Below, one piece after another: positions 7,586-64,000 of a stretch of DNA of 64,000 bases (positions are counted from its first letter, which is position 1; each line of letters begins with the position of its first letter). Origin of the DNA: Burkholderiales bacterium (lineage in GTDB: Bacteria > Pseudomonadota > Gammaproteobacteria > Burkholderiales > Burkholderiaceae_C). A program made the position numbers and the translations under genes. The notes under the pieces were generated by a model. It saw nothing but the letters and a program-made list of their open reading frames with translations. It was not told the DNA's origin and did no database searches. The stretch is from NCBI GenBank assembly GCA_028868995.1, contig JAGWTH010000020.1:1-64000 (forward strand). Direction: 5' to 3'.

Positions 7586-7787
7586 ACTTCGCGAGCGCCT
7601 GCACCACGATCGCGTGCGCCCCGGGCGCGCCCGCGTCCAGGAGCTCCAGCAGCTGCCGACGCATGCGCGGCTCCCAGAACTTGCGGATGTGCGTGGCGAT
7701 GCCCTCGAGCGCCTCGTCGCGGTCCGGGAAGGCTTCGAAGAAGTCGCCGATGCGGTTGGCCATGCGGATGAGGTTGTCGCTGTCCAT
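7566..7787 (-). CDS. fdsD: Formate dehydrogenase delta subunit FdsD
   Basis: 73 residues, the usual length for FdsD. The start is the ATG giving [13 protein letters not shown], the typical N-terminus of the family (N-L--M-N-I---F), and the C-terminus has the expected [14 protein letters not shown] ending. It is the last gene of the fds operon, 5 bases after the fdhD stop. FdsD is a small accessory subunit of soluble NAD-dependent molybdenum formate dehydrogenase; in related bacteria it is needed for an active complex, though its exact role is not settled. The 3' end overlaps the convergent chemoreceptor gene. Confidence 0.9.
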
Positions 7788-7792
7788 GGGCG

Positions 7793-8617: not shown

Positions 8618-11502
8618 CGGTCGCCGGCGGCGCCGGCCGCCTCCAGGTGGGCCAGCTGCTCGCGGTGGAAGCGCGAATGGTTCTCCTGCCATTCCGAGGG
8701 CCGGGCCACCGGCAGCACCTGCACCGCGGTCACCTTGTATTCGGGGCAGTTGGTGGCCCAGTCGGAGCTGTCGGTGGTGATCACGTTGGCGCCGGATTCG
8801 GGGAAGTGGAAGGTCGTGTAGACCACGCCCGGCTGCACGCGTTCGGTGACCAGCGCGCGCAGCACCGTCTCGCCCGCGCGGCTGGCGATGCCCACCCAGT
8901 CGCCGTCGCGGATGCCGCGGTCCTGCGCGTCGTGCGGGTGGATCTCCAGCCGGTCCTCGCTGTGCCACCGGCTGTTCGGCGTGCGGCGCGTCTGCGCACC
9001 GACATTGTACTGCGAGAGGATGCGGCCGGTGGTCAGCAGCAGCGGGAAGCGCTGCGTCACCTTCTCGTCGCTGGGGACGTACTTCGTGATCATGAAGCGG
9101 CCCTGGCCGCGCACGAAGCGGTCCACGTGCATGATCGCGGTGCCGGTCTCTGCCGTGTCCGCGTTGCAGGGCCACTGCACGCTGCCGTGCTGCTCGATCT
9201 TCTCGTAGCTGACGCCGGCGAAGCTGGGCGTCAGCGCCGCGATCTCCGCCATGATCTCGCGCGGGTGGCCGTAGGCCATCGGGTAGCCCAGCGCGTTGGC
9301 CAGCAGCTGCGTCACCTCCCAGTCCGCGTAGCCCGCCAGCGGCGGCATCACCTTGCGCACGCGCGAGATGCGCCGCTCCGCGTTGGTGAAGGTGCCGTCC
9401 TTCTCCAGGAAGGAGGACCCGGGCAGGAAGACGTGCGCGTACTTGGCCGTCTCGTTCAGGAAGAGGTCCTGCACCACGATGCACTCCATGGCCGACAGCG
9501 CCGCGGCCACGTGCTGGGTGTCGGGGTCGGACTGCACGATGTCCTCGCCCTCGCAATACAGGCCCTTGAAGCTGCCCGCCAGCGCCGCGTCGAACATGTT
9601 GGGGATGCGCAGGCCCGGCTCCGGGTCCAGCTCCACGCCCCAGGCCGCCTCGAACTGGCCGCGCACCGTGCCGTCGGAGATGTGGCGGTAGCCGGGCAGC
9701 TCGTGCGGGAAGCTGCCCATGTCGCAGCTGCCCTGCACGTTGTTCTGGCCGCGCAGCGGGTTCACGCCCACGCCCTCGCGGCCCACGTTGCCGGTGGCCA
9801 TGGCGAGGTTGGCGATGCCCATCACCATCGTGGAGCCCTGGGCATGCTCGGTCACGCCCAGGCCGTAGTAGATGGCGGCGTTGACCGGGGCGCCGGTGCG
9901 CCGGCCTTCGGCATTGCCGGTGGCATAGAGGCGGGCCGCGCCGCGCACCAGGTGGGCGGGCACGCCGATGACCGCCTCCATGGCTTCGGGCGAGTTCTCG
10001 GGCCGGGCCACGAATTCCTTCCACTGCTGGAAGGACTTGCCGTCGCAGCGCTCGGCGATGTAGTCCTCGGCCAGCAGGCCCTCGGTCACCACCACGTGGG
10101 CCAGGGCGCTGATCAGCGCGACGTTGGTGCCGGGCTTGAGCTGCAGGTGAAAGGCCGCGCGGATGTGCGGCGACTGCACGAGATCGATCTTCCGGGGGTC
10201 CACCACGATCAGCTGCGCGCCCTGGCGCAGGCGCTTCTTCATGCGCGAGGCGAACACCGGGTGCGCGGCCGCCGGGTTGGCGCCGATCACCAGGATCACG
10301 TCGCTCTTCTCGACCGACCGGAAGGTCTGGGTGCCGGCCGAGGTGCCGAAGGCCTGGCCCAGGCCGTAGCCGGTGGGCGAATGGCACACCCGCGCGCAGG
10401 TGTCGACGTTGTTGTTGCCGAAGGCCGCGCGGATCAGCTTCTGCACGAGGTAGGTCTCCTCGTTGGTGCAGCGCGAGGAGGTGATGCCGCCGATCGCGTC
10501 CTTGCCGTGCTTGCCCTGGATGCGCCGGAATTCGGAGGCCGCGTAGGCGATGGCTTCCTCCCAGCCCACCTCGCGCCAGGGCTCGTGGATGCTCTTGCGG
10601 ATCATCGGCCGGGTGATCCGGTCCTTGTGGGTGGCGTAGCCCCAGGCGAAGCGGCCCTTGATGCAGGAATGGCCCTCGTTGGCCTGGCCGTCCTTCCAGG
10701 GCACCATGCGCACGACCTGGCTGCCCTTCATCTCCGCCTTGAAGCCGCAGCCCACGCCGCAGTAGGCGCAGGTGGTGACCACGCTGTGCTCCGGCTGGCC
10801 CAGCTCGATCACCGTCTTCTCCTGCAGCGTGGCGGTGGGGCAGGCCTCGACGCAGGCGCCGCAGCTGACGCACTCGCTTTCCATGAAAGGCTGGTCCTGG
10901 CCCGGCGACACGCGCGATTCGAAGCCGCGGCCGCTGATGGTGAGGGCGAAGGTGCCCTGCTGTTCCTCGCAGGCGCGCACGCAGCGGCTGCAGACGATGC
11001 ACTTGGACGGGTCGTAGGTGAAGTACGGGTTGGACTCGTCCTTCTTCGCGTCCAGGTGGCTGGCGCCGTGGAAGCCGTAGCGCACGTTGCGCAGCCCCGT
11101 CACGCCCGCCATCTCCTGCAGCTCGCAGTCGCCGTTGGCGCTGCAGGTCAGGCAGTCGAGCGGGTGGTCGGAGATGTAGAGCTCCATCACGCCCTTGCGC
11201 AGGTCCTGCAGCTTCGGCGTCTGGGTGCGCACCTTCATGCCGGCCTCGGCCGGGGTGGTGCAGGAGGCGGGGAAGCCCTTGCGGCCCTCGATCTCCACCA
11301 GGCACAGGCGGCAGGAGCCGAAGGGCTCGACGGAGTCGGTGGCGCACAGCCTGGGCACCCGGATGCCGGCCTCGACGGCCGCGCGCATCAGGGAAGTGCC
11401 CTGCGGCACCGTGACGGCCTGGCCGTCGATCTCCAGCGTCACTTCCTGCGCGGATTCGCGTTTCGGGGTGCCGTAGTCGGCGACGTGTTCGTGTTCGAGC
11501 AT
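8614..11502 (-). CDS. fdsA: NAD-dependent formate dehydrogenase alpha (catalytic) subunit
   Basis: 962 residues. Oxidises formate to CO2 at a bis-MGD molybdenum centre and passes electrons to FdsB/FdsG. Domain order: N-terminal [2Fe-2S] ferredoxin domain (residues about 18-95, CATD----FGSCRLC), His/Cys cluster site (HPLDCLTCSANGDC), two [4Fe-4S] sites (CIVCSRCVRAC and CVSCGACVEAC), then the molybdopterin domain with its own cluster (CAYCGVGC). The molybdenum-ligand cysteine lies in ARVCHSPTG, so this is the Cys-type rather than the selenocysteine enzyme. The C-terminal molybdopterin dinucleotide-binding domain contains TTGRILSQYN. The gene starts 10 bases after the fdsB stop. All key residues are present. 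Confidence 0.96.
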   Translation of the reverse strand: MLEHEHVADYGTPKRESAQEVTLEIDGQAVTVPQGTSLMRAAVEAGIRVPRLCATDSVEPFGSCRLCLVEIEGRKGFPASCTTPAEAGMKVRTQTPKLQDLRKGVMELYISDHPLDCLTCSANGDCELQEMAGVTGLRNVRYGFHGASHLDAKKDESNPYFTYDPSKCIVCSRCVRACEEQQGTFALTISGRGFESRVSPGQDQPFMESECVSCGACVEACPTATLQEKTVIELGQPEHSVVTTCAYCGVGCGFKAEMKGSQVVRMVPWKDGQANEGHSCIKGRFAWGYATHKDRITRPMIRKSIHEPWREVGWEEAIAYAASEFRRIQGKHGKDAIGGITSSRCTNEETYLVQKLIRAAFGNNNVDTCARVCHSPTGYGLGQAFGTSAGTQTFRSVEKSDVILVIGANPAAAHPVFASRMKKRLRQGAQLIVVDPRKIDLVQSPHIRAAFHLQLKPGTNVALISALAHVVVTEGLLAEDYIAERCDGKSFQQWKEFVARPENSPEAMEAVIGVPAHLVRGAARLYATGNAEGRRTGAPVNAAIYYGLGVTEHAQGSTMVMGIANLAMATGNVGREGVGVNPLRGQNNVQGSCDMGSFPHELPGYRHISDGTVRGQFEAAWGVELDPEPGLRIPNMFDAALAGSFKGLYCEGEDIVQSDPDTQHVAAALSAMECIVVQDLFLNETAKYAHVFLPGSSFLEKDGTFTNAERRISRVRKVMPPLAGYADWEVTQLLANALGYPMAYGHPREIMAEIAALTPSFAGVSYEKIEQHGSVQWPCNADTAETGTAIMHVDRFVRGQGRFMITKYVPSDEKVTQRFPLLLTTGRILSQYNVGAQTRRTPNSRWHSEDRLEIHPHDAQDRGIRDGDWVGIASRAGETVLRALVTERVQPGVVYTTFHFPESGANVITTDSSDWATNCPEYKVTAVQVLPVARPSEWQENHSRFHREQLAHLEAAGAAGDR

Positions 11503-52104: not shown

Positions 52105-53832
52105 ATGTTTCTAACGATTTCACGGAAATCGTATGGGGCGCAAGCTCTGGTCCGCGTGCCTCGCTGGCGGGCCGACTATCGCGTCCAGCTCTGGGCCGGC
52201 TGCGTGGTGCTGCTGCTATGCCTTTGGGGCGGGCTGGTCCACGCGGTCCTGAACAACGCGAGTGAGGCGCGCGCCCAGCGGCGCGAGAAGGCGCTGGCGA
52301 CGGCCAACGGCTTCGCCGAGTATTTCCGGCTGCACCTGATGCAGGTGGACCGAGTGCTGCTCAACCTGCGCGAAATCTACGCGCAGACCGGCAGGCTGCC
52401 TGACCGCTCACTGATCCTGGCCGACATGGGCGACCGGGAATCGGTCGTCATCAACGTGGCCGTGGCCGGCGAGGATGGCGTCATCAAGGCAAGCGCACTG
52501 CCCGAGGCCGGGCCGATCAGCATCGCGGACCGGGAGCATTTCCAGGCGCTGCGGCGTGATCCGCGCGATCGAATCTACGTCGGCCCCCCGGTGGTCGGGC
52601 GCATGACCAGGCAGCTCGCGATCCCCGTGGCGCGCCCGGTCCTGGATGCGGGTGGGCGATTCCGCGGGGTGATCTTCGCATCGATCGACCCGACGCTGCT
52701 GCAACGGTACTTCCAGTCGGTCGATGCGTTCGCCGATGGCGGCGCGATCTCGCTGGTCCAGGTGGACCCGCCCCGTATCCTGGCGCGATTCACCCACGGC
52801 CATCTCTCCGGGGGCCAGTCCCTGGAAGGGGCCGCGAACTGGGCCTCGATCGCATCCGGGGCGTCGGGGACCTTCGAGGCCCGCAGCGTCATCGACGGCA
52901 AGGCGCGCATCTTCGGATTCAGCCGCGTGGGCGGGTCCCCGGTGGCGGTCCTCGCCAGCACGGAATTCTCCGACTGGCCTGTCCTGACCAACCCCGGCTA
53001 CCTCGCGGCCGTCCTCCTGGGGCTCCTCTGCACCGCCAGCCTGGTGTTCCTCACCCGCCTCCTGTCGCGGCGGACCCTGGAGCAGCAGCGCGTGATCGCG
53101 CGCCTGCAGGAGAGCAGGGCGCGGGAGGCGGAGGCCAGTCGCCTGAAGTCCGGATTCCTCGCTTCGGTATCTCACGAGTTGCGCACGCCTCTGCACGCCA
53201 TCGTGGGGTTTTCGGAACTCATCCGAGACCATTCCGGAGACCCGCAGGCGAGCCAATACGCTTCGCTCATCCACAGCAGCGGAGTTCACCTCCATTCGCT
53301 CGTGAACACACTACTTGACCTCGCCAAGATCGAGGCTGGCCGCATGGAACTGCACCTGGAGACCGTCGACGTGGGCGAGTTGATCGAAACGCTGGTCGAG
53401 ACCCATCGCGTGGCGGCACAGAAGAAGGGGCTGTCGATGGCTCTGCAGCTGTCCCTGCCCCCGGATGCGCGCCTCGAAGCGGAGACAGACCGAACCAAAC
53501 TGACACAGATCCTGAACAACGTGCTGCACAACGCAGTGAAATTCACTTCGGAGGGGGCCGTGAGGGTAGCGGTGTCGGTGGTTGGAACGACCCTTGTGCT
53601 TCGGGTGAACGACACGGGCAGCGGGATCGCGCCCCACCATCTGCCGCATGTCTTCGAGCAGTTTCGGCGTGCCCATGACGAATTCAGCGAGCAGGAAGGA
53701 ACGGGCCTCGGCCTGCCCCTGTCGCGCCAACTCCTCGCGCTGCTCGGGGGCACGATCGCAATCCAGTCCTGGGTAGGCAAGGGAACGACCGTTGAGGTTC
53801 GCTTGCCGGGAATCCGAATCTTGGAACACTAA
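52105..53832 (+). CDS. Membrane sensor histidine kinase
   Basis: 575 residues. Membrane helices at about residues 27-50 and 297-320 flank a periplasmic domain of the Cache/PDC type (about 51-295). Cytoplasmic part: HisKA with SVSHELRTPLHAIVGF (phospho-His near residue 357), HATPase_c with NNVLHNAVKF (N box, about 466), DTGSGIAPHH (G1, about 502) and GTGLGLPLSRQ (G2). No receiver domain is attached. The start is uncertain because no ribosome site is seen. The next gene, a single receiver, begins right after the stop, so it should be its partner. Confidence 0.88.
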   Translation: MFLTISRKSYGAQALVRVPRWRADYRVQLWAGCVVLLLCLWGGLVHAVLNNASEARAQRREKALATANGFAEYFRLHLMQVDRVLLNLREIYAQTGRLPDRSLILADMGDRESVVINVAVAGEDGVIKASALPEAGPISIADREHFQALRRDPRDRIYVGPPVVGRMTRQLAIPVARPVLDAGGRFRGVIFASIDPTLLQRYFQSVDAFADGGAISLVQVDPPRILARFTHGHLSGGQSLEGAANWASIASGASGTFEARSVIDGKARIFGFSRVGGSPVAVLASTEFSDWPVLTNPGYLAAVLLGLLCTASLVFLTRLLSRRTLEQQRVIARLQESRAREAEASRLKSGFLASVSHELRTPLHAIVGFSELIRDHSGDPQASQYASLIHSSGVHLHSLVNTLLDLAKIEAGRMELHLETVDVGELIETLVETHRVAAQKKGLSMALQLSLPPDARLEAETDRTKLTQILNNVLHNAVKFTSEGAVRVAVSVVGTTLVLRVNDTGSGIAPHHLPHVFEQFRRAHDEFSEQEGTGLGLPLSRQLLALLGGTIAIQSWVGKGTTVEVRLPGIRILEH

Positions 53833-54210
53833 ATGAGCATGCAACCCGTCGAAGGACTCGTCTACGTCGTGGATGATGTCGAGTGCAATCGCCTCCTCGG
53901 TGAGGCGCACTTGAAACTGCTCGGATGGCGCGTGCGCACCTTGGCGAGCGCACGTGAGGCCTTGCTGGCGTTGCGGGAGGAGACTCCCCAGTCAATGCTG
54001 GTCGACATGCGCATGCCCGAAATGACCGGCCGAGAGCTTGCCAGCTTGCTCCAATCGCGTGCCGACACGCGCGTCATCCGGCTTGTCGGCTACACCGCCC
54101 ACGCTCATCCCGACGAAATTCGCAAATTCCGCGAAGCGGGATTCGCGGAGGTACTCATCAAGCCTGCACAGATGGCGGACATGGAGCGGGTATTCGGGAG
54201 GAGAGCATGA
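53833..54210 (+). CDS. Single-domain response regulator
   Basis: 125 residues, receiver only. Acid pocket YVVDDVE (Asp14/Asp15), phospho-acceptor Asp58 in LVDMRMPEMTG, Thr/Tyr switch in VGYTAHA, and Lys in LIKPAQ. All five key positions are present. It starts at the base after the kinase stop and its stop overlaps the next gene as ATGA, so the three are probably one operon. It may carry phosphate to the next regulator or to the Hpt-like protein. Confidence 0.88.
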   Translation: MSMQPVEGLVYVVDDVECNRLLGEAHLKLLGWRVRTLASAREALLALREETPQSMLVDMRMPEMTGRELASLLQSRADTRVIRLVGYTAHAHPDEIRKFREAGFAEVLIKPAQMADMERVFGRRA

Positions 54211-54914
54211 CCGATCTCCAGGCTGCGGCTCCATCCGGGGCGCCACGCTGGTTGTCATCTGATGTCAGGCCGGAGCCTGCGAAGCCGTCGGTGCTCATCA
54301 TCGACGACCACGACATCGCGCGCTTCGCGCTCGAGGCCGCGATCCTCGGCTGCCCCGCGCTGCGGCTGGTCGGCTCGGCGGCCAGCCTCGCCGACGGCCT
54401 GTCGAAGATCCGCGACCTCCGGCCGGACCTGGTGATCACGGATCTCGCCCTGCCCGATGGCAAGGGTGCGGAGACGCTGCGGGCCGTGCTGGAGGCCCAG
54501 GGCCCGCGCCGGACCCTGGTGGTGTCGATGCACGACGAGCTTTCCTACGGCCAGATGGCGCTTCGCGCCGGCGCGGCCGGCTACCTGATGAAGGACAACG
54601 CGCAGGCCAACGTGGTGCGGGCGGCGACCACGGTGCTGGAAGGCGGCCGCTGGGCGAGCCCCGCGCTCGCCGCGCGGCTGCTGGACCAGGTGCTGGCACC
54701 CGAGCGCCGGGACGCGGACGCGGGCCAGGCGCGGTTGACCGTGCGCGAACTCGAGGTGCTGGAGCAGCTGAAGGCGGGCCGCACCACCAAGGAAATCGCC
54801 GCGGCCCTCGGCCTCAGCGTGCGCACGGTGGACCTCTATCGCGCGAGCATCAAGCGCAAGCTGCACCTGCGCACGGGCGTGCAGCTGGTCGTGTACGCGA
54901 TCAACAAGCTCTGA
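54207..54914 (+). CDS. LuxR-type DNA-binding response regulator
   Basis: 235 residues. Receiver domain (about residues 27-145; IIDDHD acid pocket, phospho-Asp79 in VITDLALPDGKG, Lys in LMKDNAQ) and a C-terminal LuxR helix-turn-helix (about 165-230, LTVRELEVLEQLKAGRTTKEIA). NarL/FixJ type. The start overlaps the previous gene. The N-terminus has about 25 extra residues that look unstructured. It likely regulates genes for the whole signalling cluster; direct repeats 54999-55034 just downstream could be a target. Confidence 0.9.
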   Translation: MTDLQAAAPSGAPRWLSSDVRPEPAKPSVLIIDDHDIARFALEAAILGCPALRLVGSAASLADGLSKIRDLRPDLVITDLALPDGKGAETLRAVLEAQGPRRTLVVSMHDELSYGQMALRAGAAGYLMKDNAQANVVRAATTVLEGGRWASPALAARLLDQVLAPERRDADAGQARLTVRELEVLEQLKAGRTTKEIAAALGLSVRTVDLYRASIKRKLHLRTGVQLVVYAINKL

Positions 54915-54998
54915 GCCACCCCGTTCCCCGTTCCCGGCAGGTCGCGTCAGCCACCTGCCGGTTGGCCGTTGCCTGGCCGAACGAATGTGACCGATTGC

Positions 54999-55034
54999 AA
55001 CTACATGGTCGTCCCACGCAGAACTACATAGTCG
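54999..55034. promoter_or_regulatory. Direct repeats AACTACATxGTCG
   Basis: AACTACATGGTCG (54999-55011) and AACTACATAGTCG (55022-55034) are 23 bases apart, about two helical turns, upstream of the NarX-like kinase gene. Probable regulator binding site; which regulator is not known. Confidence 0.4.
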
Positions 55035-55126
55035 CGCGTGCGTGACACGCGCGAGCATGGAGGCCATACGGGAAGCCATGCCGGACGAGGGCGGCAAGTC
55101 CCGGAAGCCGCGACAGGAGGGCCGAC

Positions 55127-55939
55127 ATGTTCCAACCCATTCAACCAGGAGTTTCATCCCGCTTCCCGGGGGAGCGCGGCACGCGCGGCCTGGGACTGCG
55201 CGGCGCCGACCGGGGCTTCGCCGGGCGCTTCGCTCCGCGGGCCGACGGCCCCCTGCCGGTCGCGGCTGCGGTGACCGCCGCCGTGGAGCAGGAGCGGGCG
55301 CGGGTGGCCCACGAGCTCCACGATGACGTGACCCAGGCGCTGTTCGCGCTGAAGATCGATTGCGCCTGGCTGCGCCAGAACCTCCAGCGCGATCCCCGCC
55401 GAGCGCTGCAGCGCCTGGAAGCCATGCAGGCGCTGCTGGATGGCTCGGCCGCCTCGGTGCGGCGCATCGCCACCGGTCTGCGGCCCCTGGCCCTGGCGGA
55501 GCAAGGGCTGGCCCCGGCGATCGAAAGGCTGGTTCGCGAGTTCCTCGCCTGCACCGGGACGCGTTGCGATCTCTACCTCGCGGGGGACCTGGGCCTGCAC
55601 GAGCCCTACGCGTCCACCCTGTTCCGCCTGGTCCAGGAGGCCCTGGCCAATGCGCGCAAGCATGCCGACGCGAAGGAGGTCACGGTGAACATCTCCCGGC
55701 AGGGGGACCTGCTGTCGTTCTGCGTGCGTGATGACGGCAAGGGGTTTTCGCCGCGCGCGGCCCAGCGTGCCGACGCGATGGGCCTCGCCGGCATGCAGGA
55801 ACGGGTGCATCTGGTCGGGGGGGAGCTGCTCGTGTCGAGCACGCCCGGCGGCGGCACGATGGTCGCCGGCTGCATGCGCGTCGACCCGCAGCCGGACGCC
55901 GACCCGGAACAGCGAGGAGGCGACCGTGGGCTGCTGTGA
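55127..55939 (+). CDS. Soluble histidine kinase (NarX/HisKA_3 type)
   Basis: 270 residues. No membrane helix: an N-terminal 45 residues of low complexity lead to the HisKA_3 block ARVAHELHDDVTQALFALKI (His62/His65 candidate, with HD pair) and an ATPase domain (about 170-265) with N box EALANARKHADA, G1 DDGKGFSPRA and GMQERVHLVGGEL. The start is fixed by ACAGGAGGGCCGACATG. It is followed by a small protein and by a LuxR regulator without the usual acid pocket. It may take a signal from the upstream system. Confidence 0.87.
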   Translation: MFQPIQPGVSSRFPGERGTRGLGLRGADRGFAGRFAPRADGPLPVAAAVTAAVEQERARVAHELHDDVTQALFALKIDCAWLRQNLQRDPRRALQRLEAMQALLDGSAASVRRIATGLRPLALAEQGLAPAIERLVREFLACTGTRCDLYLAGDLGLHEPYASTLFRLVQEALANARKHADAKEVTVNISRQGDLLSFCVRDDGKGFSPRAAQRADAMGLAGMQERVHLVGGELLVSSTPGGGTMVAGCMRVDPQPDADPEQRGGDRGLL

Positions 55940-56078
55940 CGGTCACTGCCAAGACGAAGGCAGGAACTGCAGCGGCGCGCACCAGGCCACGCGCGTGGCG
56001 ATGCGCCGCTTGTGGCTGCCGCTGCTGTGTTTCCTGGCGATCACGGCCTGGGCCGTGCTCACCGGTCCCTCGGCATGA
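55926..56078 (+). CDS. Tiny Cys-rich membrane protein
   Basis: 50 residues from a GTG preceded by a perfect GAGGAGG ribosome site, overlapping the 3' end of the kinase gene by 14 bases. The N-terminus has a compact cysteine motif (CCDGHCQDEGRNC), followed by a basic turn and one membrane helix (LWLPLLCFLAITAWAVLTG). Not recognised. The Cys cluster facing the cytoplasm could bind a metal or a thiol signal. Translational coupling with the kinase suggests a sensing or modulating role. It is too short for most gene finders. Confidence 0.55.
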   Translation: MGCCDGHCQDEGRNCSGAHQATRVAMRRLWLPLLCFLAITAWAVLTGPSA

Positions 56079-56148
56079 ATTTTGTTCGGGGGGACCGCGG
56101 CTGTCCGAGGGCATCCGGGCCGGTCGCCCCCCCAGTTGGAGAGAAGAA

Positions 56149-56916
56149 ATGAAATTCCTTGAAGAAACGAGCGAGCGCTACCTGGCACAGGACATCGTGC
56201 CCGGCGCTCCGGAGCACGCGCCCGCCGCTTCCGGCGCGCCCGTGCAGGTCTACCTCGTGGCACAGCCGCTGGTGGGATGGGGCCTGCAGCGCATGGTGCA
56301 GACGGCCGGGCCGCGCTTCCAGCTGGCCGGCGTGTCCGCGCGCCTCGAGGAGTCGCTGCCCATCCTCGAACGCAGCCTGCCCGACGTGGTCGTGCTCGAC
56401 TTCGACGACGGTTACGGCGTGGAGGACCTGCGCGATGCCTACCATGCGATGCGCGCGAAGGTGCTGGTGCTCACGGGTGTCACGGACCCGGCGTTTCTCA
56501 CCCAGCTGCTCCATGCCGGCGCCACCGGCGTGCTGCAGAAGCGCGAGGCGCCGGCGGCCCTCCTTCGGGCCATCGACACGGTCGGCGCGGGCCGCGTCTT
56601 CGCCACCGAGTCGGCCACCGATCGCCTGTTCGAGGTGGCCGCGCGCAGCGCGGCCCGGCGCCAGGACGGAGACGCCAGCCGCATCGCGAGCCTGACCCTG
56701 CGCGAGCGCCAGACCATCGCCGCCGTCACCTCCGATGCCTCGGCGCCGGTCAAGGTGATCGCCGGGCGGCTGTGCATCAGCGAGCACACGCTGCGCAACC
56801 ACCTGACCTCGATCTACTCCAAGCTGGGCGTGACGGGGCGCCTGGCGCTGCACGCTTACGCAGACCAGCATGCGCTCAAGGGCGCTGCCGCGCGGATGGG
56901 GCGCGACGCCCGCTGA
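56149..56916 (+). CDS. LuxR-type regulator with degenerate receiver domain
   Basis: 255 residues from the ATG at 56149, with GGAGAGAAGAA ahead; the frame is open to 55936. The receiver (about 33-150) has the central Asp84 (VVLDFDD) and Lys (LQKRE), but the usual acidic pair at the top of strand 1 is missing (VQVYLVAQPL), so it may not be phosphorylated. C-terminal LuxR helix-turn-helix near residues 180-245 (SLTLRERQTIAAVTSDASAP and ISEHTLRNHLTSIYSKLGV). It is downstream of the kinase and the Cys-rich protein and 72 bases upstream of the PilZ-like gene that precedes wecB-nfrB, so it may control that cluster. Confidence 0.85.
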   Translation: MKFLEETSERYLAQDIVPGAPEHAPAASGAPVQVYLVAQPLVGWGLQRMVQTAGPRFQLAGVSARLEESLPILERSLPDVVVLDFDDGYGVEDLRDAYHAMRAKVLVLTGVTDPAFLTQLLHAGATGVLQKREAPAALLRAIDTVGAGRVFATESATDRLFEVAARSAARRQDGDASRIASLTLRERQTIAAVTSDASAPVKVIAGRLCISEHTLRNHLTSIYSKLGVTGRLALHAYADQHALKGAAARMGRDAR

Positions 56917-56987: not shown

Positions 56988-57305
56988 ATGGTCCGCGCAC
57001 CCGCGGCCCGGTCACACTTCCGCATGCGACCGATGGCCAGGACCCACGATTCCGAGAACTTCCGCCTGCAGCTGCAGCTGCCGGACGGCAGTCCGGCGGT
57101 CGCGACCGAGCTCGATGCCTCGGGCATGCTGCTCGAGACTTCCGCGCGCCTGCGGCCGGGCCAGGAGCTCGCCTTCGAACTGCGCGCGCCCGACTCCCAT
57201 CTCGTCTTCGTCGTGCACGGCGAGATCGTCTCCGTGCACCGCTACGGCGCGCTGCTGCGCGCGCGCGTCCACTTCAACGACCTGAGCCTGCGCGGCGCGC
57301 ACTGA
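56988..57305 (+). CDS. PilZ-like protein (putative c-di-GMP receptor)
   Basis: 105 residues. The start follows GGGTGGG. A basic RPMAR (R-x3-R) lies near residues 14-18, and then ELDASGML, which resembles the D/N-x-S-x-x-G of PilZ but with G directly after Ser. A beta-barrel-like alternation follows (LRPGQELAFELRA, HLVFVVHGEIVSVH). PilZ proteins bind c-di-GMP through the RxxxR and DxSxxG motifs; here both look partly degenerate. Position just upstream of wecB-nfrB-nfrA, whose E. coli counterparts are c-di-GMP controlled, supports the reading. I judge it plausible, not proven. Confidence 0.55.
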   Translation: MVRAPAARSHFRMRPMARTHDSENFRLQLQLPDGSPAVATELDASGMLLETSARLRPGQELAFELRAPDSHLVFVVHGEIVSVHRYGALLRARVHFNDLSLRGAH

Positions 57306-57539
57306 GCCGCTCGCGGCGCGCGCCTTCCCCGGCCCGCGAGGACGCACTCCGGGGCGGGTGCGACTTCCTTCACGCACCTCCTGCCTCTCCATGACATCAC
57401 CGGGACAGGTGTCCTGGGAAGTCGGGAGGCTTCGCCCGCGCGCGTGCCGCGACGGCTGCGTACATTTTTTTGCATGTGTTCGCCGTGCGTCGAGAGCTCG
57501 TCGCGACGCGGCGCGCGCCTCCTTCCAACCGAGGACCCC

Positions 57540-58721
57540 ATGAGCCAACGCACCATCGCCATCGTCGCCGGCACCCGTCCCGAAATCATCAAGCTCGCCC
57601 CCGTGTACCGGACCCTGCGCATGAGCGACGACATGGACGTCCGCTGGATCCACACGGGCCAGCACGCCGACATGGCGTGGGACATGCTCCGCTGCTTCGG
57701 CATCGTCCCGGACGCGCAACTGCACCGCACGGGAACCACGCTGGAGGAATTCAGCACGGGCTGCCGGACGCAGCTCGACGTCCTGCGCTCCCGCGAAGCC
57801 TGGGATGCCTGCGTCGTCCAGGGCGACACCGAGAGCGCGTTCGTCGGGGCGCTGTCTTCGTTCTACGGGCGGGTGCCGGTGGTGCACGTGGAAGCGGGCC
57901 TGCGGACGCGCGACCTGGAGCGCCCGTTCCCGGAAGAGGGCATCCGCCAGATGATCAGCCGCATCGCGGCGCTGCACCTGGCGCCGACCGAGCGCGCGCG
58001 CCAGGCGCTGCTGGCCGAAGGCGTGGAGCCGCAGCGCATCCGCGTCACCGGCAACACGGTCGTCGACGCCCAGCTGTGGGTCTGCTCGCTGTACGGCATC
58101 CGCCGCCAGCAGGGGCCCGACCGCGGGCACATCCTGGTGACCGCCCACCGGCGCGAGCACTGGGGCCGGGACATGGAGGAGACATTCCATGCGGTGGCCG
58201 ACATTGCCGCGGCCTATCCGGCCACGCACGTCCTGTTTCCCGTGCACCTCAACCCGGCGGTCCAGAAGCCGGCCCGGGAGATCCTCGGCCGGCTGCCGAA
58301 CGTGTCGCTGGTGGCGCCGCTGGACTACCTCGGCATGCAACGGGCGCTGGCCAACGCGCGCCTGCTGCTGACCGACTCGGGCGGGCTGCAGGAGGAGGCG
58401 CCGACCTTCCACGTTCCCACGCTGGTGCTGCGGCGCGAGACGGAGCGGCCCGAGGCGGTCGAGGCCGGCTGCGCGGAACTGGTCGGTCCTGGCCGCGCGG
58501 ACATCGTGGCCGCCACCCGCCGCCTCATGGACGACCCCGACGCCGCCGCCGCCATGCGGGATGTCGCCAATCCCTTCGGCGACGGCCATGCGGCCGAGCG
58601 GGTCCTGCAGGCGATGCAGGAGCTCCTGGGCCTGCAGCGTGCGCGGCCTCAGCTGCAGGTGCTGCGCGGCGTCGGCGCCGGCGCGGTCGCGGCACGGCAC
58701 CAGCCCCACGGCCGCGCTTGA
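57540..58721 (+). CDS. wecB: UDP-N-acetylglucosamine 2-epimerase (non-hydrolysing)
   Basis: 393 residues. Converts UDP-GlcNAc to UDP-ManNAc. The family blocks are all there: GTRPEIIKLAP, HTGQH, VQGDTESAFVG, VHVEAGLRT, PFPEEGIRQ, VTGNTVVDA, VTAHRREHWG and LTDSGGLQEEAP. The start is the ATG at 57540 at the end of a GGACCCC stretch; the upstream frame is open but not family-like. In E. coli the wecB product feeds both the common antigen and the N4 glycan receptor; here the gene is immediately upstream of nfrB, so it should supply UDP-ManNAc for that polymer. The C-terminal 25 residues are a low-complexity extension. Confidence 0.95.
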   Translation: MSQRTIAIVAGTRPEIIKLAPVYRTLRMSDDMDVRWIHTGQHADMAWDMLRCFGIVPDAQLHRTGTTLEEFSTGCRTQLDVLRSREAWDACVVQGDTESAFVGALSSFYGRVPVVHVEAGLRTRDLERPFPEEGIRQMISRIAALHLAPTERARQALLAEGVEPQRIRVTGNTVVDAQLWVCSLYGIRRQQGPDRGHILVTAHRREHWGRDMEETFHAVADIAAAYPATHVLFPVHLNPAVQKPAREILGRLPNVSLVAPLDYLGMQRALANARLLLTDSGGLQEEAPTFHVPTLVLRRETERPEAVEAGCAELVGPGRADIVAATRRLMDDPDAAAAMRDVANPFGDGHAAERVLQAMQELLGLQRARPQLQVLRGVGAGAVAARHQPHGRA

Positions 58722-58732
58722 GAGGCCATGCG

Positions 58733-60364
58733 ATGAGCCTGCCCGACTTCCTCGCGCAGATCGCCGGCGCCATGGAGGCGCTGACGGCCGTGCTGCTCGT
58801 GGTGATCCTCGCGTCGTCCCTGGACGACGCCTTCCTTGACGTCAACTACTGGGTGCGCCGGCTGCGGCGTCCGCGCGGCTGGCCGGTGCGTCCGCACGCA
58901 TCCGCCCAGGCCCTGCGCGCCCTCCCCGAGGTGCCCATGGCGATCATGGTCCCGGCCTGGCATGAAAGCGACGTCATCGCCGCCATGCTGGACAACCTGA
59001 TCCGGCGCCAGGAGTACGACGACTACGTCGTTTTCGTGGGCACCTACCCGAACGATCCGCAGACCATCGCCGAGGTCGAGCGCATGGCGGCCTTGCACCC
59101 GCGGGTGCGGCGGGTGGATGTCGGCCATCCCGGGCCGACCTGCAAGGCGGACTGCCTCAATGCCATCGTCGAGGAGATCTTCCGCCACGAGCGGGTTGCC
59201 AAGCGCAAGTTCCACGGCATCGTGATGCACGACAGCGAGGACGTGCTGCATTCGCTGGAGCTGCGCTATTTCTCGGCTGCGCTCGCGCACTTCGACATGG
59301 TGCAGATCCCTGTAGTGGCGCTGGAGCGCGGGGTGCACGCCCTCGTGGCCGGGACCTACATGGACGAATTCGCGGAGTCGCACGCGAAGGAGATGCTGGT
59401 GCGCGAGGCGATGTGCGGCAGCATCCCCTCGGCCGGCGTCGGCACCTGCTTCTCGCGCGCGGCGATCCGGGCCCTGTGGGACCGGTCGGAGGGGGAGCCC
59501 TACCGCACCGACAGCCTGACCGAGGACTACGAGATCGGGATGCGCCTGGCGGAGCTGGGCCTGCGATCGAGCTTCGAGGTGGTGGACATCGTCGAGGACG
59601 GGCCGGGCGCGCCGTCGCAGGCGCTCGTGCCCGAAACCGAGAGGCTGCTGTCCGTGCGCGAGTTCTTCCCGGCGAGCTTCCGCGCGGCCTACCGGCAGAA
59701 GGCGCGCTGGATCCTGGGCATCGGCCTGCAGTCGTGGGAACAGATGCCGATGCGCGGCCGGTCCGCCGGGGACATCTACATGATGCTGCACGACCGCAAG
59801 GGGGTGGTGACCGCCTTCGTGCCGCCGGTGGCCTACCTGATCCTGCTCTACGCAATGCTGCTGGAGGGGGCGACCGCAGCCGACCTGATCCCCGCGCCCT
59901 CCGGCGGCCTGCTCGGCGCCAGTGCCGCCTGGATGGCCCTCGTCTACGTCAACGGCAGCCTGCTCGCGGTGCGCTGCGTGCAGCGGGCGTACTTCACCAC
60001 CTCCATCTACGGCTGGAAGCAGGGCATCGCGGCGATCCCGCGCATGGTGGTGGGCAACTTCGTCAACTGCATGGCGGCCGCGCGGGCCTGGCGCCTGTAC
60101 CTCGTGCACCGCCTGGCACGCCGCCCCCTGGCCTGGGAGAAGACCGCGCACCAGTTTCCGGACCTCCCCGAACCCGAGGGGATGCCGGCGTTCGCCGCCG
60201 TGCCCCTGTCGGCCGGCCGCCCCGCGCTGGCGCTGGTTCCGGGCTCCGCGCCGCCCGGCCGCCCGGCCAGCCATCCCCTGCCGCACATGCCGCGCCGGCG
60301 GGTGCCGCACGCATCCGCGGCGGCCGAACCGGACCTCGGCCCGCAACGCATTCCCCACCCCTGA
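58733..60364 (+). CDS. nfrB: NfrB-like glycosyltransferase (phage N4 adsorption protein B homolog)
   Basis: 543 residues. Family-2 glycosyltransferase in the inner membrane: membrane helix at about residues 12-30, cytoplasmic GT2 core at about 70-300 with VMHDSED (DxD-like), LTEDYEIG and the processivity motif RQKARW (about 321-326), then several membrane helices (about 365-480). E. coli NfrB is longer and ends in a c-di-GMP-sensing MshEN domain; this protein ends in a Pro/Arg-rich tail with no such domain. The ATG at 58733 is chosen over an out-of-frame ATG at 58728; the frame starts 12 bases after the wecB stop. NfrB polymerises N-acetylmannosamine in E. coli. Confidence 0.92.
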   Translation: MSLPDFLAQIAGAMEALTAVLLVVILASSLDDAFLDVNYWVRRLRRPRGWPVRPHASAQALRALPEVPMAIMVPAWHESDVIAAMLDNLIRRQEYDDYVVFVGTYPNDPQTIAEVERMAALHPRVRRVDVGHPGPTCKADCLNAIVEEIFRHERVAKRKFHGIVMHDSEDVLHSLELRYFSAALAHFDMVQIPVVALERGVHALVAGTYMDEFAESHAKEMLVREAMCGSIPSAGVGTCFSRAAIRALWDRSEGEPYRTDSLTEDYEIGMRLAELGLRSSFEVVDIVEDGPGAPSQALVPETERLLSVREFFPASFRAAYRQKARWILGIGLQSWEQMPMRGRSAGDIYMMLHDRKGVVTAFVPPVAYLILLYAMLLEGATAADLIPAPSGGLLGASAAWMALVYVNGSLLAVRCVQRAYFTTSIYGWKQGIAAIPRMVVGNFVNCMAAARAWRLYLVHRLARRPLAWEKTAHQFPDLPEPEGMPAFAAVPLSAGRPALALVPGSAPPGRPASHPLPHMPRRRVPHASAAAEPDLGPQRIPHP

Positions 60365-60381
60365 CCCGCAGAGGAAGTTCC

Positions 60382-60645
60382 ATGAAACCTGCCCTGAAGC
60401 GCATGGCGGCCATGCTTGTCGCCACCCTCTCCGTCGCGGCCTCCCTGGCCCAGCCCGTGAAGCCGCCGCCGCTGCCGGCCGGATCGGAGCTCGCCCGGCC
60501 CCAGCCCGGCATGAACGAGCCGGAGCGCAAGCGCATGCACCGCGCGCACAAGCAGCCGCACCCGCGCGACTACCGCGTGGACGACAGCGTGCAACCTCCT
60601 CCGCCCGCAACGCCGGGCAGCAGGAACCCCAACGCGGGCCGGTGA
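60382..60645 (+). CDS. Small secreted Pro-rich basic protein of the nfr cluster
   Basis: 87 residues, with AGAGGAAG ahead of the ATG. Signal peptide about residues 1-23 (core MLVATLSVAASLA, cleavage at SLA-QP). The mature part is short, Pro-rich, with a basic middle (ERKRMHRAHKQPHPRDYR) and no cysteine. Not recognised. It sits between nfrB and the deacetylase-like gene, 17 and 10 bases from them, so it is a member of the operon. A small periplasmic partner, possibly holding an anionic or amino polymer, is a guess. Confidence 0.65.
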   Translation: MKPALKRMAAMLVATLSVAASLAQPVKPPPLPAGSELARPQPGMNEPERKRMHRAHKQPHPRDYRVDDSVQPPPPATPGSRNPNAGR

Positions 60646-60655
60646 GGAGCACGCC

Positions 60656-62287
60656 ATGAACCGCTTCGTCCGCTTCCTCCTCGTCGCCTGCGCGCTCTGC
60701 GCGTCCTTCCTGGCCGCTCCCGCGCAGGCCGGCCCCCGGGTGCTGGCCCTCTACGACGCTCCCCAGGGCACCCCCTACGACAAGCTGGGCTTCGCCTACG
60801 CCATCATGCTGCGCAACCTGCTGGGCCACTTCGACGCCCAGGTGGACCTGCAACCGGTCGGCAGCTACACCGCCGGGTCGCTCGCCAACTACGACGCGAC
60901 CTTCTACCTCGGCGCCATCTACGACAACCCGATCCCGGCGGCCTTCCTCGCGGACGCGGCCGTCGCCACGAAACCGCTGGTCTGGTTCAAGTACAACCTG
61001 TGGCAGCTCGCCTGGAACAGCGCCTACAACTTCCAGGCCACCCGAGGCATCGCCTTCCAGGGGCTGCGCGGATTCAACGCGCCCCCCTCGGCGGCGAACC
61101 CCAGCCCGGGATTCTTCGACACGGTGAAGTTCAAGGGCCTGAACTTCGTCAAGTACTACGCCTTCAACAGCGCGACCGGCGTCGTCAGCGCGGACCCGGA
61201 CATCGGCGTGACGGCGGTGACCGACCCGACGAAAGCCACCGTGCCGGTGAGCGTGGCCAACTCCGTCACCGGCGAAGTCGCTCCCTACATGATTCGCTCC
61301 GGCAACTTCTGGTACGTGGCCGACATGCCCTTCAGCTTCATCGGCCCGCGCGACCGGTACCTGGTCTTCGCGGACCAGCTGCATGACATGCTGGGCATCA
61401 ACCATGCCGAGAGCCACCAGGCCATGGTGCGACTGGAGGACGTGGGCGCGATGGTCACCGTCAGCTCGATGAAGAAGCTCTCGGACTACCTGTACCAGCG
61501 GCACATCCCGTTCTCGGTCGCCGTCATTCCCCACTACATGGACCCGCTGGGTGTCTACAACGGCGGCGTGCCGATGGACGTTTCGCTGTCCCAGGCGACC
61601 AACCTGAAGACCTCGCTCGACTACGCGCTGCAGCGCGGCGGCGACCTGGTGATGCACGGCTTCACGCACCAGTACGACGCGATGCGCAACCCGCACACCG
61701 GGGTGAGCGGGGACGACTTCGAGTTCTGGAACATCGTGGCCAACTCGCCGGTGGCGGAGGACTCCACGTCCTGGACGCTCGGCCGCCTGAACTCGGGCCT
61801 GACCGAGCTCACCGCCAACGGCTACAAGGTGTTCGCCTGGGAGACTCCGCACTACCAGGCCTCGGCCACCGCCTCGCGCGCCTTCGCGCAGAAGTTCGCC
61901 AAGACCTACCAGCGGGTCGTGTACTACACGGCCGACCAGCCGGACTTCACCGCCTCGGTGGCCCGCGACTACGCGGTGGGCCAGATCTTCCCGTACCCGG
62001 TCCGCACGGACTACTACGGCCAGCGGGTGCTGCCGGAAAGCCTGGGCAACATCGAGTACGACATCCACCTGATCGACCCGACGTCGAACTACAACTACAC
62101 GGCCCAGGACATCATCACCAACGCGGCCTACGTCAAGACCGTGCGTGACGGCGTCGCCTCCTGGTTCTTCCATCCGTTCTGGCTCGACCCCGACCTGGGC
62201 GTTCCGGGCTTCACGGACTTCAAGACCACCATCACCGGCATCACCAACCTGGGCTTCACCTGGGTGCGCGCCAGCACCCTGCCCTAG
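60656..62287 (+). CDS. DUF2334 polysaccharide deacetylase-like protein
   Basis: 543 residues. Signal peptide about 1-25 (cleavage at AQA-GP), so periplasmic or outer-leaflet. The N-terminal half is a Rossmann-like domain (VLALYDAPQGTPYDKLGF, YLGAIYDNPIP), as in PelA-like proteins. The C-terminal half is a carbohydrate-esterase-4-like domain: MVRLEDVG near residue 259 (metal Asp), SVAVIPHY, MHGFTHQYDAM (His pair) and SWFFHPFW. These are the DUF2334 motifs. It would remove acetyl groups from a secreted N-acetyl sugar polymer. Its place between nfrB and nfrA suggests the polymer is the ManNAc product, which is an inference. Confidence 0.85.
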   Translation: MNRFVRFLLVACALCASFLAAPAQAGPRVLALYDAPQGTPYDKLGFAYAIMLRNLLGHFDAQVDLQPVGSYTAGSLANYDATFYLGAIYDNPIPAAFLADAAVATKPLVWFKYNLWQLAWNSAYNFQATRGIAFQGLRGFNAPPSAANPSPGFFDTVKFKGLNFVKYYAFNSATGVVSADPDIGVTAVTDPTKATVPVSVANSVTGEVAPYMIRSGNFWYVADMPFSFIGPRDRYLVFADQLHDMLGINHAESHQAMVRLEDVGAMVTVSSMKKLSDYLYQRHIPFSVAVIPHYMDPLGVYNGGVPMDVSLSQATNLKTSLDYALQRGGDLVMHGFTHQYDAMRNPHTGVSGDDFEFWNIVANSPVAEDSTSWTLGRLNSGLTELTANGYKVFAWETPHYQASATASRAFAQKFAKTYQRVVYYTADQPDFTASVARDYAVGQIFPYPVRTDYYGQRVLPESLGNIEYDIHLIDPTSNYNYTAQDIITNAAYVKTVRDGVASWFFHPFWLDPDLGVPGFTDFKTTITGITNLGFTWVRASTLP

Positions 62288-62295
62288 GAGAGTCC

Positions 62296-64000
62296 ATGCA
62301 GTTCCCTTCGCCAGCCTTCCCGCGCCGGCCGTCTTACCGTGCGGTCGCCGCCGCGGCGGCCCTGGTCCTCGCCTGCCATGCGGCGGGCGCGGCGCAGACG
62401 GGGCCGGTGTCGCCCCAGGCCCGCGCGCAGGCGGCGTACGCGGCGGCCGATGCCGCCTACCAGGCCTACGCCGCCGGCGCCTACGCGGACGCCGCCGACC
62501 ATGCGGCGCGCGCCACGAACCTGGTGCCGCGGCGGCGCGACTACTGGCTGCTGCTCGCCCGGGCGCAGATGGCCTTGGGCCGGCTGCACGCGGCCAGCCT
62601 GGCGCTGGACGCGGCCGAGCGCGCGCGGGGCGACGACGCGGCGCTGGCGAAGCTGCAGGACGAACTGACGCAGGCACGCGCCCGCGAGGCGGCCGGGGCG
62701 ATGTATGCCGCGCTGGCGGCGGGCGAGCTGCCGCGCGCGGTCGACAGCGGCACGCTGGCGGTGCGCCTGGCTCCGGCCGATCCCGCCTATCGCCTGGTGC
62801 TGGTGCACACGCTGTTGCGCCAGCGGCGTTTCGCCGAGGCGCAGGGTTTTGCCGCGGAAGGACTGGCGCAGCGGCCGGGCGATGGAGCCCTGTGGGCGCT
62901 GAGCGCCCAGGCATTGCATGCCCTCGGCAAGGACGACGAGGCATCGGGCGCGGCGGCGCGCGCGTTGCAGCAGCCGGCCCCCGAGGCATTGCTCCGGCAG
63001 CAGCGGCTGCTGGCTGCCGACCTCGCGCTGGCGCAGGGCCGGCCCGGCGGCATCGGGGAACTGGTGGAACCGATGGGAGCCCAGGACGCCGCCGCGCAGA
63101 GCCGGCGGGACTGGGCCGCCCAGGAGTTCGCGCGGCCGCAGGGGCCGCGGCCCGCGCTGCCGCTGCCGGCGATCGACTGCAGCGGCGTGCAGTCCCAGGG
63201 CACTTGCATGCTGCAGGCCGGCGCGCTGCAGGCGCTGCCCGGACATGCCGATGCCACGGCGGCCTATGCGGCCATGGACCGGAAGGATTACGGTGCCGCG
63301 CTGCGGCATGCGCGCCTGGCCACCGAGGCATCGCCCGGCCAGCGGGCGTGGTGGCGCCTGCACCTGCAGGCGGCCATCGGCGCCGGGGAGCGGGACGAGG
63401 CCGAGGCCATCGCGGCGCGGCCCGAACTCGCCGCGCAGGACCGCCTCCAACTGGCCTACCTGTCGCTGCGCGCGGGCGACGACCCGGCCGGACTGCGGAC
63501 CTTCGCCAGCCTCGAGGCCCAGGGCGAACTGCCGCCCCCGGCCACGCTCGACGCCGCCTATGCGGCGGTGCGCGCCGGTCGCGACGAGGAGGCGCTCGCC
63601 TACTTCGACCAGGCGGTCGCCTACGCCAACGAGGGCAGGCTGCCGCTGGACCCGCAGCGCCTTTACGAGACGAAGCGCGAGGCCGCCGACGTTTCCCGCA
63701 AGTGGGGCGTGCTCGCCTCCGTCACTTCGCGCAACGCCGCCGGCATCGAGCCGGTGTTCGGCGCGATCGGCAGCGGCGGCAACCAGCGCACCACCCAGGG
63801 CGGCACCGAGGCCTACTGGCGTCCCTGGGGCTATGGAGGCGGGCGCTACGTCGAGGTGTTCGCGCGGGGCTTCGCCACGCTGGCCGCCGACGCCCCCGGC
63901 GCCTGGACCGGCGGCGACAGCTTCCAGGGCGGCATCGGCGCGCGCTGGAAGCCGCTCGCCGAGCACGACCTGGTGCTCTCCGGTTCGCGGATCTTCGGCC
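62296..64000 (+). CDS. nfrA: NfrA-like outer-membrane exporter/receptor (3' end outside the window)
   Basis: The frame stays open from the ATG at 62296 to the window end (568 codons seen). Signal peptide about 1-33 (core AAAAALVLACHAAGA). Then an Ala-rich TPR superhelix to about residue 440 (repeats such as YWLLLARAQMALGRLHAA and WWRLHLQAAIGAGERDEA). The start of the C-terminal outer-membrane domain is at about residue 475 (SRKWGVLASVTSRNAAG) and is cut by the edge. E. coli NfrA has the same TPR-plus-barrel plan and is the phage N4 receptor that handles the polymer made by NfrB. Last known member of the cluster here; more genes may follow outside. Confidence 0.9.
   Translation, partial: MQFPSPAFPRRPSYRAVAAAAALVLACHAAGAAQTGPVSPQARAQAAYAAADAAYQAYAAGAYADAADHAARATNLVPRRRDYWLLLARAQMALGRLHAASLALDAAERARGDDAALAKLQDELTQARAREAAGAMYAALAAGELPRAVDSGTLAVRLAPADPAYRLVLVHTLLRQRRFAEAQGFAAEGLAQRPGDGALWALSAQALHALGKDDEASGAAARALQQPAPEALLRQQRLLAADLALAQGRPGGIGELVEPMGAQDAAAQSRRDWAAQEFARPQGPRPALPLPAIDCSGVQSQGTCMLQAGALQALPGHADATAAYAAMDRKDYGAALRHARLATEASPGQRAWWRLHLQAAIGAGERDEAEAIAARPELAAQDRLQLAYLSLRAGDDPAGLRTFASLEAQGELPPPATLDAAYAAVRAGRDEEALAYFDQAVAYANEGRLPLDPQRLYETKREAADVSRKWGVLASVTSRNAAGIEPVFGAIGSGGNQRTTQGGTEAYWRPWGYGGGRYVEVFARGFATLAADAPGAWTGGDSFQGGIGARWKPLAEHDLVLSGSRIFG

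What the first reader, a model, noticed from the sequence alone, without database searches (positions are those of the whole stretch)
56988..64000. Self-contained wecB-nfrB-DUF2334-nfrA operon: a candidate N4-glycan-receptor-like exopolysaccharide system
Seen: wecB, nfrB, a small secreted protein, a DUF2334 deacetylase-like gene and nfrA follow each other in the same direction with gaps of 8-17 bases. Established: in E. coli, WecB, NfrB and NfrA make a secreted N-acetylmannosamine polymer that phage N4 uses as receptor, under c-di-GMP control; there wecB is not next to nfrAB. Inferred: this organism has a dedicated, possibly deacetylated version of the polymer with its own precursor enzyme. 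The grouping with a deacetylase and a signalling cluster looks unlike the E. coli locus.
Basis: partly seen in the sequence, partly recalled or inferred. Interest (0 to 1): 0.85.

Follow-up and report, generated by a model that had tools for sequence, protein, structure and literature searches.

The report
Nfr sugar-polymer operon with putative deacetylase
This bacterium carries a compact gene set that probably makes, chemically trims and exports a surface sugar polymer related to the one phage N4 uses to enter E. coli; the makers and exporter are known, but the trimming partner and the missing c-di-GMP switch look new.

Summary
wecB, nfrB, a small secreted protein, a DUF2334 gene and nfrA run in one direction with gaps of 11, 17, 10 and 8 bases; nfrA is complete, ending 428 bases past the window. 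wecB linked to nfrB is already published (PMC8669469, PMC8669472). c-di-GMP control is not carried over: this NfrB lacks the MshEN domain, and the neighbouring PilZ-like protein lacks the canonical motifs. What I did not find in print is DUF2334 as a recurring Nfr partner: in the genus 17 of 19 NfrB genomes have it against 1 of 41 without NfrB (E 1e-60), and NfrB lies near it in 57 of 80 DUF2334 loci. No NfrB locus examined had both DUF2334 and the AlgX/MBOAT O-acylation genes that 13 of 21 other family loci carry. Its model (pLDDT 91.9) has a polysaccharide-deacetylase fold with invariant metal-site residues. NfrBs without MshEN form at least two clades; the window's gene order recurs in the other one. 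Best reading: a ManNAc-polymer synthase-exporter whose polymer is N-deacetylated in the periplasm. Polymer, deacetylation and phage role are untested.

The parts
56988..57305 (+). small PilZ-like protein gene upstream; membership of the operon uncertain
   Evidence: PF07238 23.6 bits (cut-off 22.5), profile 28-90 of 102. The [DN]xSxxG position reads DASGML here and DAAGME in L113 (canonical motif recalled). A relative (43% identity) stands at the same place before the MshEN-less wecB-nfrB-nfrA of L113. By tblastn with this sequence it was seen in 0 of 80 DUF2334 loci and in 1 of 399 family genomes, its own; a diverged PilZ protein would be missed.
57540..58721 (+). wecB: UDP-GlcNAc 2-epimerase (would supply UDP-ManNAc)
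   Evidence: TIGR00236 382.2 bits; only copy over the cut-off in the genome; GAGGA four bases before the ATG
58733..60364 (+). nfrB: inner-membrane family-2 glycosyltransferase, 543 aa, without MshEN domain; Pro-rich tail after residue ~478
   Evidence: PRK15489 614 bits on profile 8-482 of 703; HDSED, TED 263-265 and Q322-R325-W326 present; no MshEN match
60382..60645 (+). small secreted protein, 87 aa, signal peptide by eye; PPPLPxGS ... RAHK ... DDS motif
   Evidence: relatives by tblastn with three seed sequences in 41 of 80 DUF2334 loci, in each just before DUF2334 in the listing (lenient limit of 28 bits, no shuffled control); example sequences
60656..62287 (+). DUF2334 secreted protein: N-terminal amidotransferase/ThuA-like part plus C-terminal polysaccharide-deacetylase barrel
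   Evidence: PF10096 154 bits; model pLDDT 91.9; E261, D262, H334, H338, H506 invariant in alignments of 54 and 51 sequences; fold matches
62296..64000 (+). nfrA: TPR plus outer-membrane barrel exporter; runs on to contig base 64428 (710 aa in all)
   Evidence: TPR_19 and NfrA_C (PF13283 116.5 bits, 2-172 of 173) on the complete protein L007 6296-8428

Best explanation
The five genes form one unit that makes, modifies and exports a hexosamine exopolysaccharide of the Nfr (NGR) kind. WecB turns UDP-GlcNAc into UDP-ManNAc; NfrB polymerises it and passes the chain across the inner membrane; in the periplasm the DUF2334 protein removes N-acetyl groups from part of the residues, perhaps helped by the small His/Lys-rich secreted protein; NfrA carries the polymer through the outer membrane. 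The product would be a partly cationic poly-mannosamine. Direct c-di-GMP switching is gone with the MshEN domain, so output is probably set by expression or another factor. Shown: genes, domains, predicted fold, conserved residues, linkage, absence of MshEN. Inferred: substrate, N-deacetylation, export of this polymer, mode of control.
Against: No biochemistry. The place of the CE4/Agd3 catalytic-base Asp is held by Glu (E261) in every sequence aligned. No CE4 Pfam domain was called at E 0.001. DUF2334 also occurs away from Nfr: none of WecB, NfrB or NfrA in 10 of 53 full-flank loci. NfrB also occurs away from DUF2334: 18 of 21 family genomes with NfrB lack a DUF2334 relative at E 1e-60, and of nine further genus loci fetched, many of them chosen because they looked odd, six have NfrB without DUF2334 nearby. 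That PssB belongs to DUF2334 is recalled, not tested. The Streptomyces glycosyltransferase is only weakly like NfrB (35 bits).
Confidence: 0.58

Rival explanations
1. DUF2334 is a chain-cleaving glycosidase, a lyase or an inactive polymer-binding scaffold, not a deacetylase.
For: Glu instead of Asp at the base position in every aligned sequence. Distant structural neighbours include a GH57 enzyme, dispersin and hexosaminidases, and a CE4 pseudoenzyme. The N-terminal part resembles ThuA and glutamine amidotransferases.
Against: Most of the 50 rows shown by VIA are deacetylases or CE4 esterases (exceptions include an allantoinase and a viral turret protein); the metal-site pattern D, HxxxH and a late H is invariant.
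Confidence: 0.22
2. An ordinary Nfr/NGR system: DUF2334 is an optional accessory, and the polymer and its control are as in E. coli.
For: The core genes are clearly Nfr family; 18 of 21 family genomes with NfrB lack DUF2334.
Against: MshEN, which binds c-di-GMP in E. coli NfrB (PMC8669469, passages), is absent. The short form is not a one-off: 11 tree rows including the window form one clade and 5 others a second.
Confidence: 0.13
3. c-di-GMP control has moved from a fused MshEN domain to the separate PilZ-like protein.
For: PilZ-like genes precede the MshEN-less wecB-nfrB pair both here and in L113, with different genes further upstream.
Against: Canonical PilZ motifs are absent in both (motif recalled). 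The gene is poorly conserved (1 of 399), was not seen with this query in the 80 DUF2334 loci, MshEN-less ones included, and lies 234 bases from wecB.
Confidence: 0.07

Closest known systems
E. coli NfrB-NfrA-WecB system (N4 glycan receptor, NGR)
   Same: WecB, family-2 synthase with the same active-site signatures, TPR-barrel exporter with NfrA_C
   Different: E. coli NfrB has a C-terminal MshEN domain, wecB lies in the ECA operon and the third gene is ybcH (PMC8669469 and PMC8669472, passages); here no MshEN, wecB inside, DUF2334 and a small secreted protein added
Nfr clusters with O-acetyltransferases (Achromobacter xylosoxidans, Simplicispira suum; PMC8669472, PMC8669469)
   Same: wecB with nfrB and nfrA plus a polymer-modification module
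   Different: their module is O-acylation (AlgX, MBOAT, AlgF; seen here in 13 of 21 family loci); here it is DUF2334, and the two were not seen together in any locus examined
Listeria Pss exopolysaccharide with PssB; Bacillus subtilis yda operon with YdaL
   Same: a deacetylase-like or YdaL-named protein encoded with a glycosyltransferase; in Listeria the backbone is beta-1,4-ManNAc; one source (jgi) names many of our homologs 'YdaL'
   Different: Gram-positive, c-di-GMP through degenerate GGDEF-type receptors; not compared by sequence here
PelA, Agd3 (CE18), NDST1: polymer N-deacetylases
   Same: fold and metal-site pattern; PelA aligns over 361 residues, both parts of the model
   Different: sequence identity about 10-11%; base position Glu instead of Asp (Agd3); PelA also hydrolyses Pel (abstract in the listing)
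Comamonadaceae bacterium OTU4NAUVB1 plasmid CP099603.1 (L176)
   Same: wecB, 515-aa glycosyltransferase without MshEN, 100-aa protein, DUF2334, TPR/NfrA_C in the same order
   Different: adds DUF4434 at the end; its NfrB belongs to the other MshEN-less clade

Membership tests
Nfr (NGR) exopolysaccharide system | NfrB family-2 synthase with DxD, TED and QxxRW signatures | tested here: met
   PRK15489 over its cut-off; the E. coli NfrB model NF008411 scores 461, below its cut-off of 1170; HDSED, TED, QKARW
Nfr (NGR) exopolysaccharide system | NfrA: signal sequence, TPR repeats, NfrA_C barrel | tested here: met
   (signal sequence by eye)
Nfr (NGR) exopolysaccharide system | WecB supplying UDP-ManNAc | tested here: met
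   (gene only, activity not tested)
Nfr (NGR) exopolysaccharide system | C-terminal MshEN c-di-GMP domain (1,705 of 1,841 published homologs, so typical, not universal) | tested here: not met
   count from PMC8669469 section 11
Nfr (NGR) exopolysaccharide system | product is a ManNAc polymer and an N4-type phage receptor | not testable with these tools
   needs glycan analysis and phage tests
DUF2334 (PF10096) | match over the gathering score | tested here: met
   154.3 bits, cut-off 26
CE4/CE18 polysaccharide deacetylases | deacetylase barrel fold | tested here: met
CE4/CE18 polysaccharide deacetylases | metal triad Asp, HxxxH and catalytic His | tested here: met
   D262, H334, H338, H506 invariant; correspondence with Agd3 by motif, not by superposed coordinates
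CE4/CE18 polysaccharide deacetylases | Asp as catalytic base | tested here: not met
   Glu261 in every aligned sequence; so it is said to work like them, not filed as CE4 or CE18
CE4/CE18 polysaccharide deacetylases | deacetylase activity | not testable with these tools
   needs enzyme assay
PilZ c-di-GMP receptor (56988-57305) | RxxxR and [DN]xSxxG motifs (recalled) | tested here: not met
   DASGML at the second motif; the Pfam match lacks the first 27 profile positions

The most novel reading that the evidence does not exclude
DUF2334 is a family of poly-ManNAc N-deacetylases, and Nfr systems come in chemically alternative types: O-acylated (AlgX/MBOAT/AlgF) or N-deacetylated (DUF2334, with a conserved small PPPLPxGS protein). 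The deacetylated type would make a cationic poly-mannosamine not yet described, freed from c-di-GMP allostery at least twice. Because NGR-dependent E. coli phages carry glycan-deacetylase tailspikes (PMC8669472, passages), removal or shielding of the acetyl groups by the cell itself could also hide the receptor from such phages.
Probability: 0.35. Interest if true: 0.75.

Novelty: new variant of a known kind. Interest (0 to 1): 0.5.

Why it matters
The NGR polymer was postulated from genetics in 2021; in the passages read its structure is inferred and its purpose open. A partner that edits acetyl groups gives a handle: it predicts a cationic product that can be isolated and tested, gives a candidate function for DUF2334 (one paper in the held library names it), and points to natural synthases without the c-di-GMP domain with which to ask what MshEN does. 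Glycan deacetylation is also what the tailspikes of NGR-dependent phages are thought to do.

Tried and rejected
Rejected: wecB-nfrAB linkage as the novelty (published). Rejected: a truncated nfrA or a window-edge artefact. Rejected: a one-off truncation of NfrB; homologs of 98%, 88% and five at 51-55% share the short form (from the best 120 of 4655 proteins) and group with 100/100 support. Weakened: the PilZ-like gene as a replacement c-di-GMP receptor (motifs absent). The two-component genes upstream (52105-56916) are near, but nothing ties them to the operon.

Led nowhere: sequence search of the DUF2334 profile against solved structures gave one chance hit at E 0.1; DUF2334 against 50,697 phage records, no match; fold comparison with viral proteins gave only distant matches, among them tail esterases and one deacetylase. 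A regular-expression count of the small protein (17 of 75) was too narrow; the tblastn count (41 of 80) is used instead and has a lenient limit. With the better model Agd3 is not among the 50 Foldseek rows shown although it was first with the weaker model, and it is not among the 50 rows shown in either VIA list.

In one search at most three candidates per genome were scored, so NfrB counts may be low. Related genomes are not independent. The tree holds 56 chosen rows, not every NfrB found; L162 was dropped for lack of an anchor; rows were labelled 'short' mainly by length. L053, labelled short, keeps a remnant of the C-terminal region; L051 (541 aa, MshEN-like match to residues 479-536 only) was left unlabelled and may be a further shortened form; P0221, a third short branch, comes from a 2.3-kb contig and may be cut off. 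The tree is unrooted. My gene caller yields shadow ORFs and uncertain starts in GC-rich loci, so synteny counts rest on tblastn.
Full report
WHAT IS THERE. The five genes are as described: wecB 57540-58721, nfrB 58733-60364, a small secreted protein 60382-60645, DUF2334 60656-62287 and nfrA from 62296, all + strand with gaps of 11, 17, 10 and 8 bases. The window is contig C39:1-64000 of a 3.76-Mb assembly, and the contig ends at 65903. nfrA is complete at 64428 (710 aa; TPR and NfrA_C); a prepilin peptidase gene (PF01478) and a CpaB-like gene (by eye) follow to the contig end. The closest named relatives of the proteins are Ramlibacter and Caenimonas, so a Comamonadaceae source is likely.

FAMILIES. 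WecB passes TIGR00236 and is the only such hit over the cut-off in the genome; a second hit of 77 bits is far below. NfrB passes PRK15489 over profile 8-482 of 703 only, has the HDSED, TED and QxxRW signatures and ends in about 65 Pro-rich residues where relatives carry the MshEN region. In the genus, 25 NfrB places were found in 19 of 60 genomes; 21 of the 25 show the C-terminal region, and the four without are the window, G024:C227, G017 and one cut off by a contig end.

WHAT IS ALREADY PUBLISHED. Section 11 of PMC8669469 (read whole) reports frequent nfrB-wecB linkage, 1,705 of 1,841 NfrB homologs with MshEN, and an alginate-type acetyltransferase cluster in Simplicispira suum. Section 9 of PMC8669472 (read whole) reports nfrA, nfrB and wecB clustered with BcsB-like and O-acetyltransferase genes in Achromobacter xylosoxidans. 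Searches for 'DUF2334' (one paper, not opened), 'DUF2334' with 'polysaccharide' (none) and three of DUF2334, YdaL, polysaccharide deacetylase, glycosyltransferase (none) gave no account of DUF2334 in an Nfr context. Only openly licensed papers are held, and supplementary files were not read.

DUF2334 IS A RECURRING NFR PARTNER. A scan of named genomes found 145 relatives, of which the best 80 were kept. NfrB lies near DUF2334 in 57 of 80, NfrA in 53, WecB in 49, DUF4434-type proteins in 40 and the small protein in 41; of the 53 loci with 8 kb on both sides, 42 have NfrB, 41 NfrB and NfrA, 31 all three, and 10 none of the three. Genera with NfrB nearby include Ramlibacter, Caenimonas, Comamonas, Collimonas, Ralstonia, Burkholderia, Paraburkholderia, Trinickia, Halopseudomonas and Microbulbifer. 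Gene order varies: wecB-small-DUF2334-BcsB-nfrB-nfrA-DUF4434 in 10 loci, divergent nfrBA in 10, nfrB-nfrA-wecB-DUF2334 in 7, DUF2334 alone in 16. The window order is seen in L053, L087, L049 (wecB inverted) and plasmid CP099603.1. By genome, NfrB is in 19 and DUF2334 in 18 of 60 genus members, both in 17; in the family sample, NfrB 21, DUF2334 3, both 3 of 399. Against strict coupling: six of nine further genus loci that I fetched, chosen partly because they looked odd, have NfrB without DUF2334 nearby.

TWO MODIFICATION MODULES. I fetched all 21 other NfrB places of the family sample. Thirteen carry O-acylation genes (MBOAT PF03062, AlgX PF16822, AlgF PF11182 identified on examples), two carry DUF2334 and six neither; none has both. 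Over all 111 loci examined, 62 rows (58 distinct) with NfrB and DUF2334 hold no O-acylation gene at the limits used. The unbiased part alone is weak (p 0.055).

LINK TO ManNAc. Two papers, seen as passages, state that Listeria makes a beta-1,4-ManNAc polymer with side galactose and that PssB, a CE4-domain protein listed as its deacetylase, is needed for cell-bound polymer (PMC6307706, PMC4817252). Bacillus subtilis is among the 7 of 14 control genomes that ring for PF10096 (4 over the cut-off, not told which), and one source names many of our homologs YdaL. That PssB is a DUF2334 protein is my recollection and was not tested. A Streptomyces plasmid places wecB and a family-2 glycosyltransferase next to, and divergent from, a DUF2334 protein; its glycosyltransferase is only weakly NfrB-like.

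LOSS OF THE c-di-GMP DOMAIN. In a 56-row tree of the synthase core, rows without MshEN fall into one clade of 11 with the window (100/100) and one of 5 (L176, L049, L053, L086, L087; 100/99), plus one doubtful row. L053 keeps a remnant of the C-terminal region, and L051, left unlabelled, may be a further shortened form. Within the first clade only the window and L113 could be read in context, and L113 has no DUF2334. If MshEN is ancestral, it was lost at least twice. A PilZ-like gene precedes wecB both here and in L113 but lacks canonical motifs, so I do not claim that it replaces MshEN.

MECHANISM. Shown: gene set, domains, predicted fold, invariant residues, linkage, MshEN absence. Reported for E. 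[quoted passage not shown] Inferred: UDP-ManNAc polymerisation, periplasmic N-deacetylation, export through NfrA, control by expression. The small protein may bind polymer or metal; this is a guess from its composition.

VERDICT. An Nfr system of a known kind with a recurrent deacetylase-type partner that I did not find reported, and without its usual c-di-GMP domain.

Noticed in passing
L113 (G024:C227:107000-124000), about 5303-10731: A second MshEN-less unit, PilZ-wecB-nfrB-nfrA without DUF2334, in a genome that also has the full wecB-small-DUF2334-BcsB-nfrB(MshEN)-nfrA-DUF4434 locus (L115).
   Followed up: partly
window 60382-60645; L011 9626-9949; L056 9683-9988: A conserved small secreted protein (PPPLPxGS ... 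RAHHHK ... KDYTRDDS in relatives) sits just before DUF2334 in many loci; the window copy matched no Pfam or NCBIfam model at E 0.001.
   Followed up: partly
L009 18244-19065, L011 11614-12534, L176 13760-14833: A DUF4434-type (PF14488) protein lies near DUF2334 in 40 of 80 loci; none was found beside the window operon before the contig end.
   Followed up: partly
L173 17950-19455: A DltA-like AMP-binding ligase (339 bits, below cut-off) lies beside the MBOAT/AlgX genes of this O-acylation-type nfr cluster, so the acyl group might not be acetyl.
   Followed up: no
L117, L118, L119, L121: Further NfrB copies with MshEN in genus members without WecB, NfrA or DUF2334 found nearby: lone synthases of unknown role.
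   Followed up: no
L177 (Streptomyces plasmid NZ_CP108510.1): wecB, a family-2 glycosyltransferase and a GH16-annotated gene lie next to a DUF2334 protein: a possible Gram-positive version.
   Followed up: partly
L021, L028: Tandem DUF2334 copies (three called genes in L021, two in L028) within one nfr locus.
   Followed up: no
window 52105-56916: A run of two-component genes (histidine kinases, receiver and LuxR-type regulators) directly upstream of the PilZ-like gene; no link to the operon shown.
   Followed up: no
L007 8513-9901: Prepilin peptidase (PF01478) and a CpaB-like gene (by eye), probably parts of a Tad-type pilus locus, start right after nfrA at the contig end.
   Followed up: no
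L036, L041, L045, L047 and others (cluster 5, 28 loci): A ~300-aa protein of unclear family recurs beside nfr/DUF2334 loci of Burkholderia, Ralstonia and Trinickia; the one copy scanned had only a weak Pfam hit.
   Followed up: no
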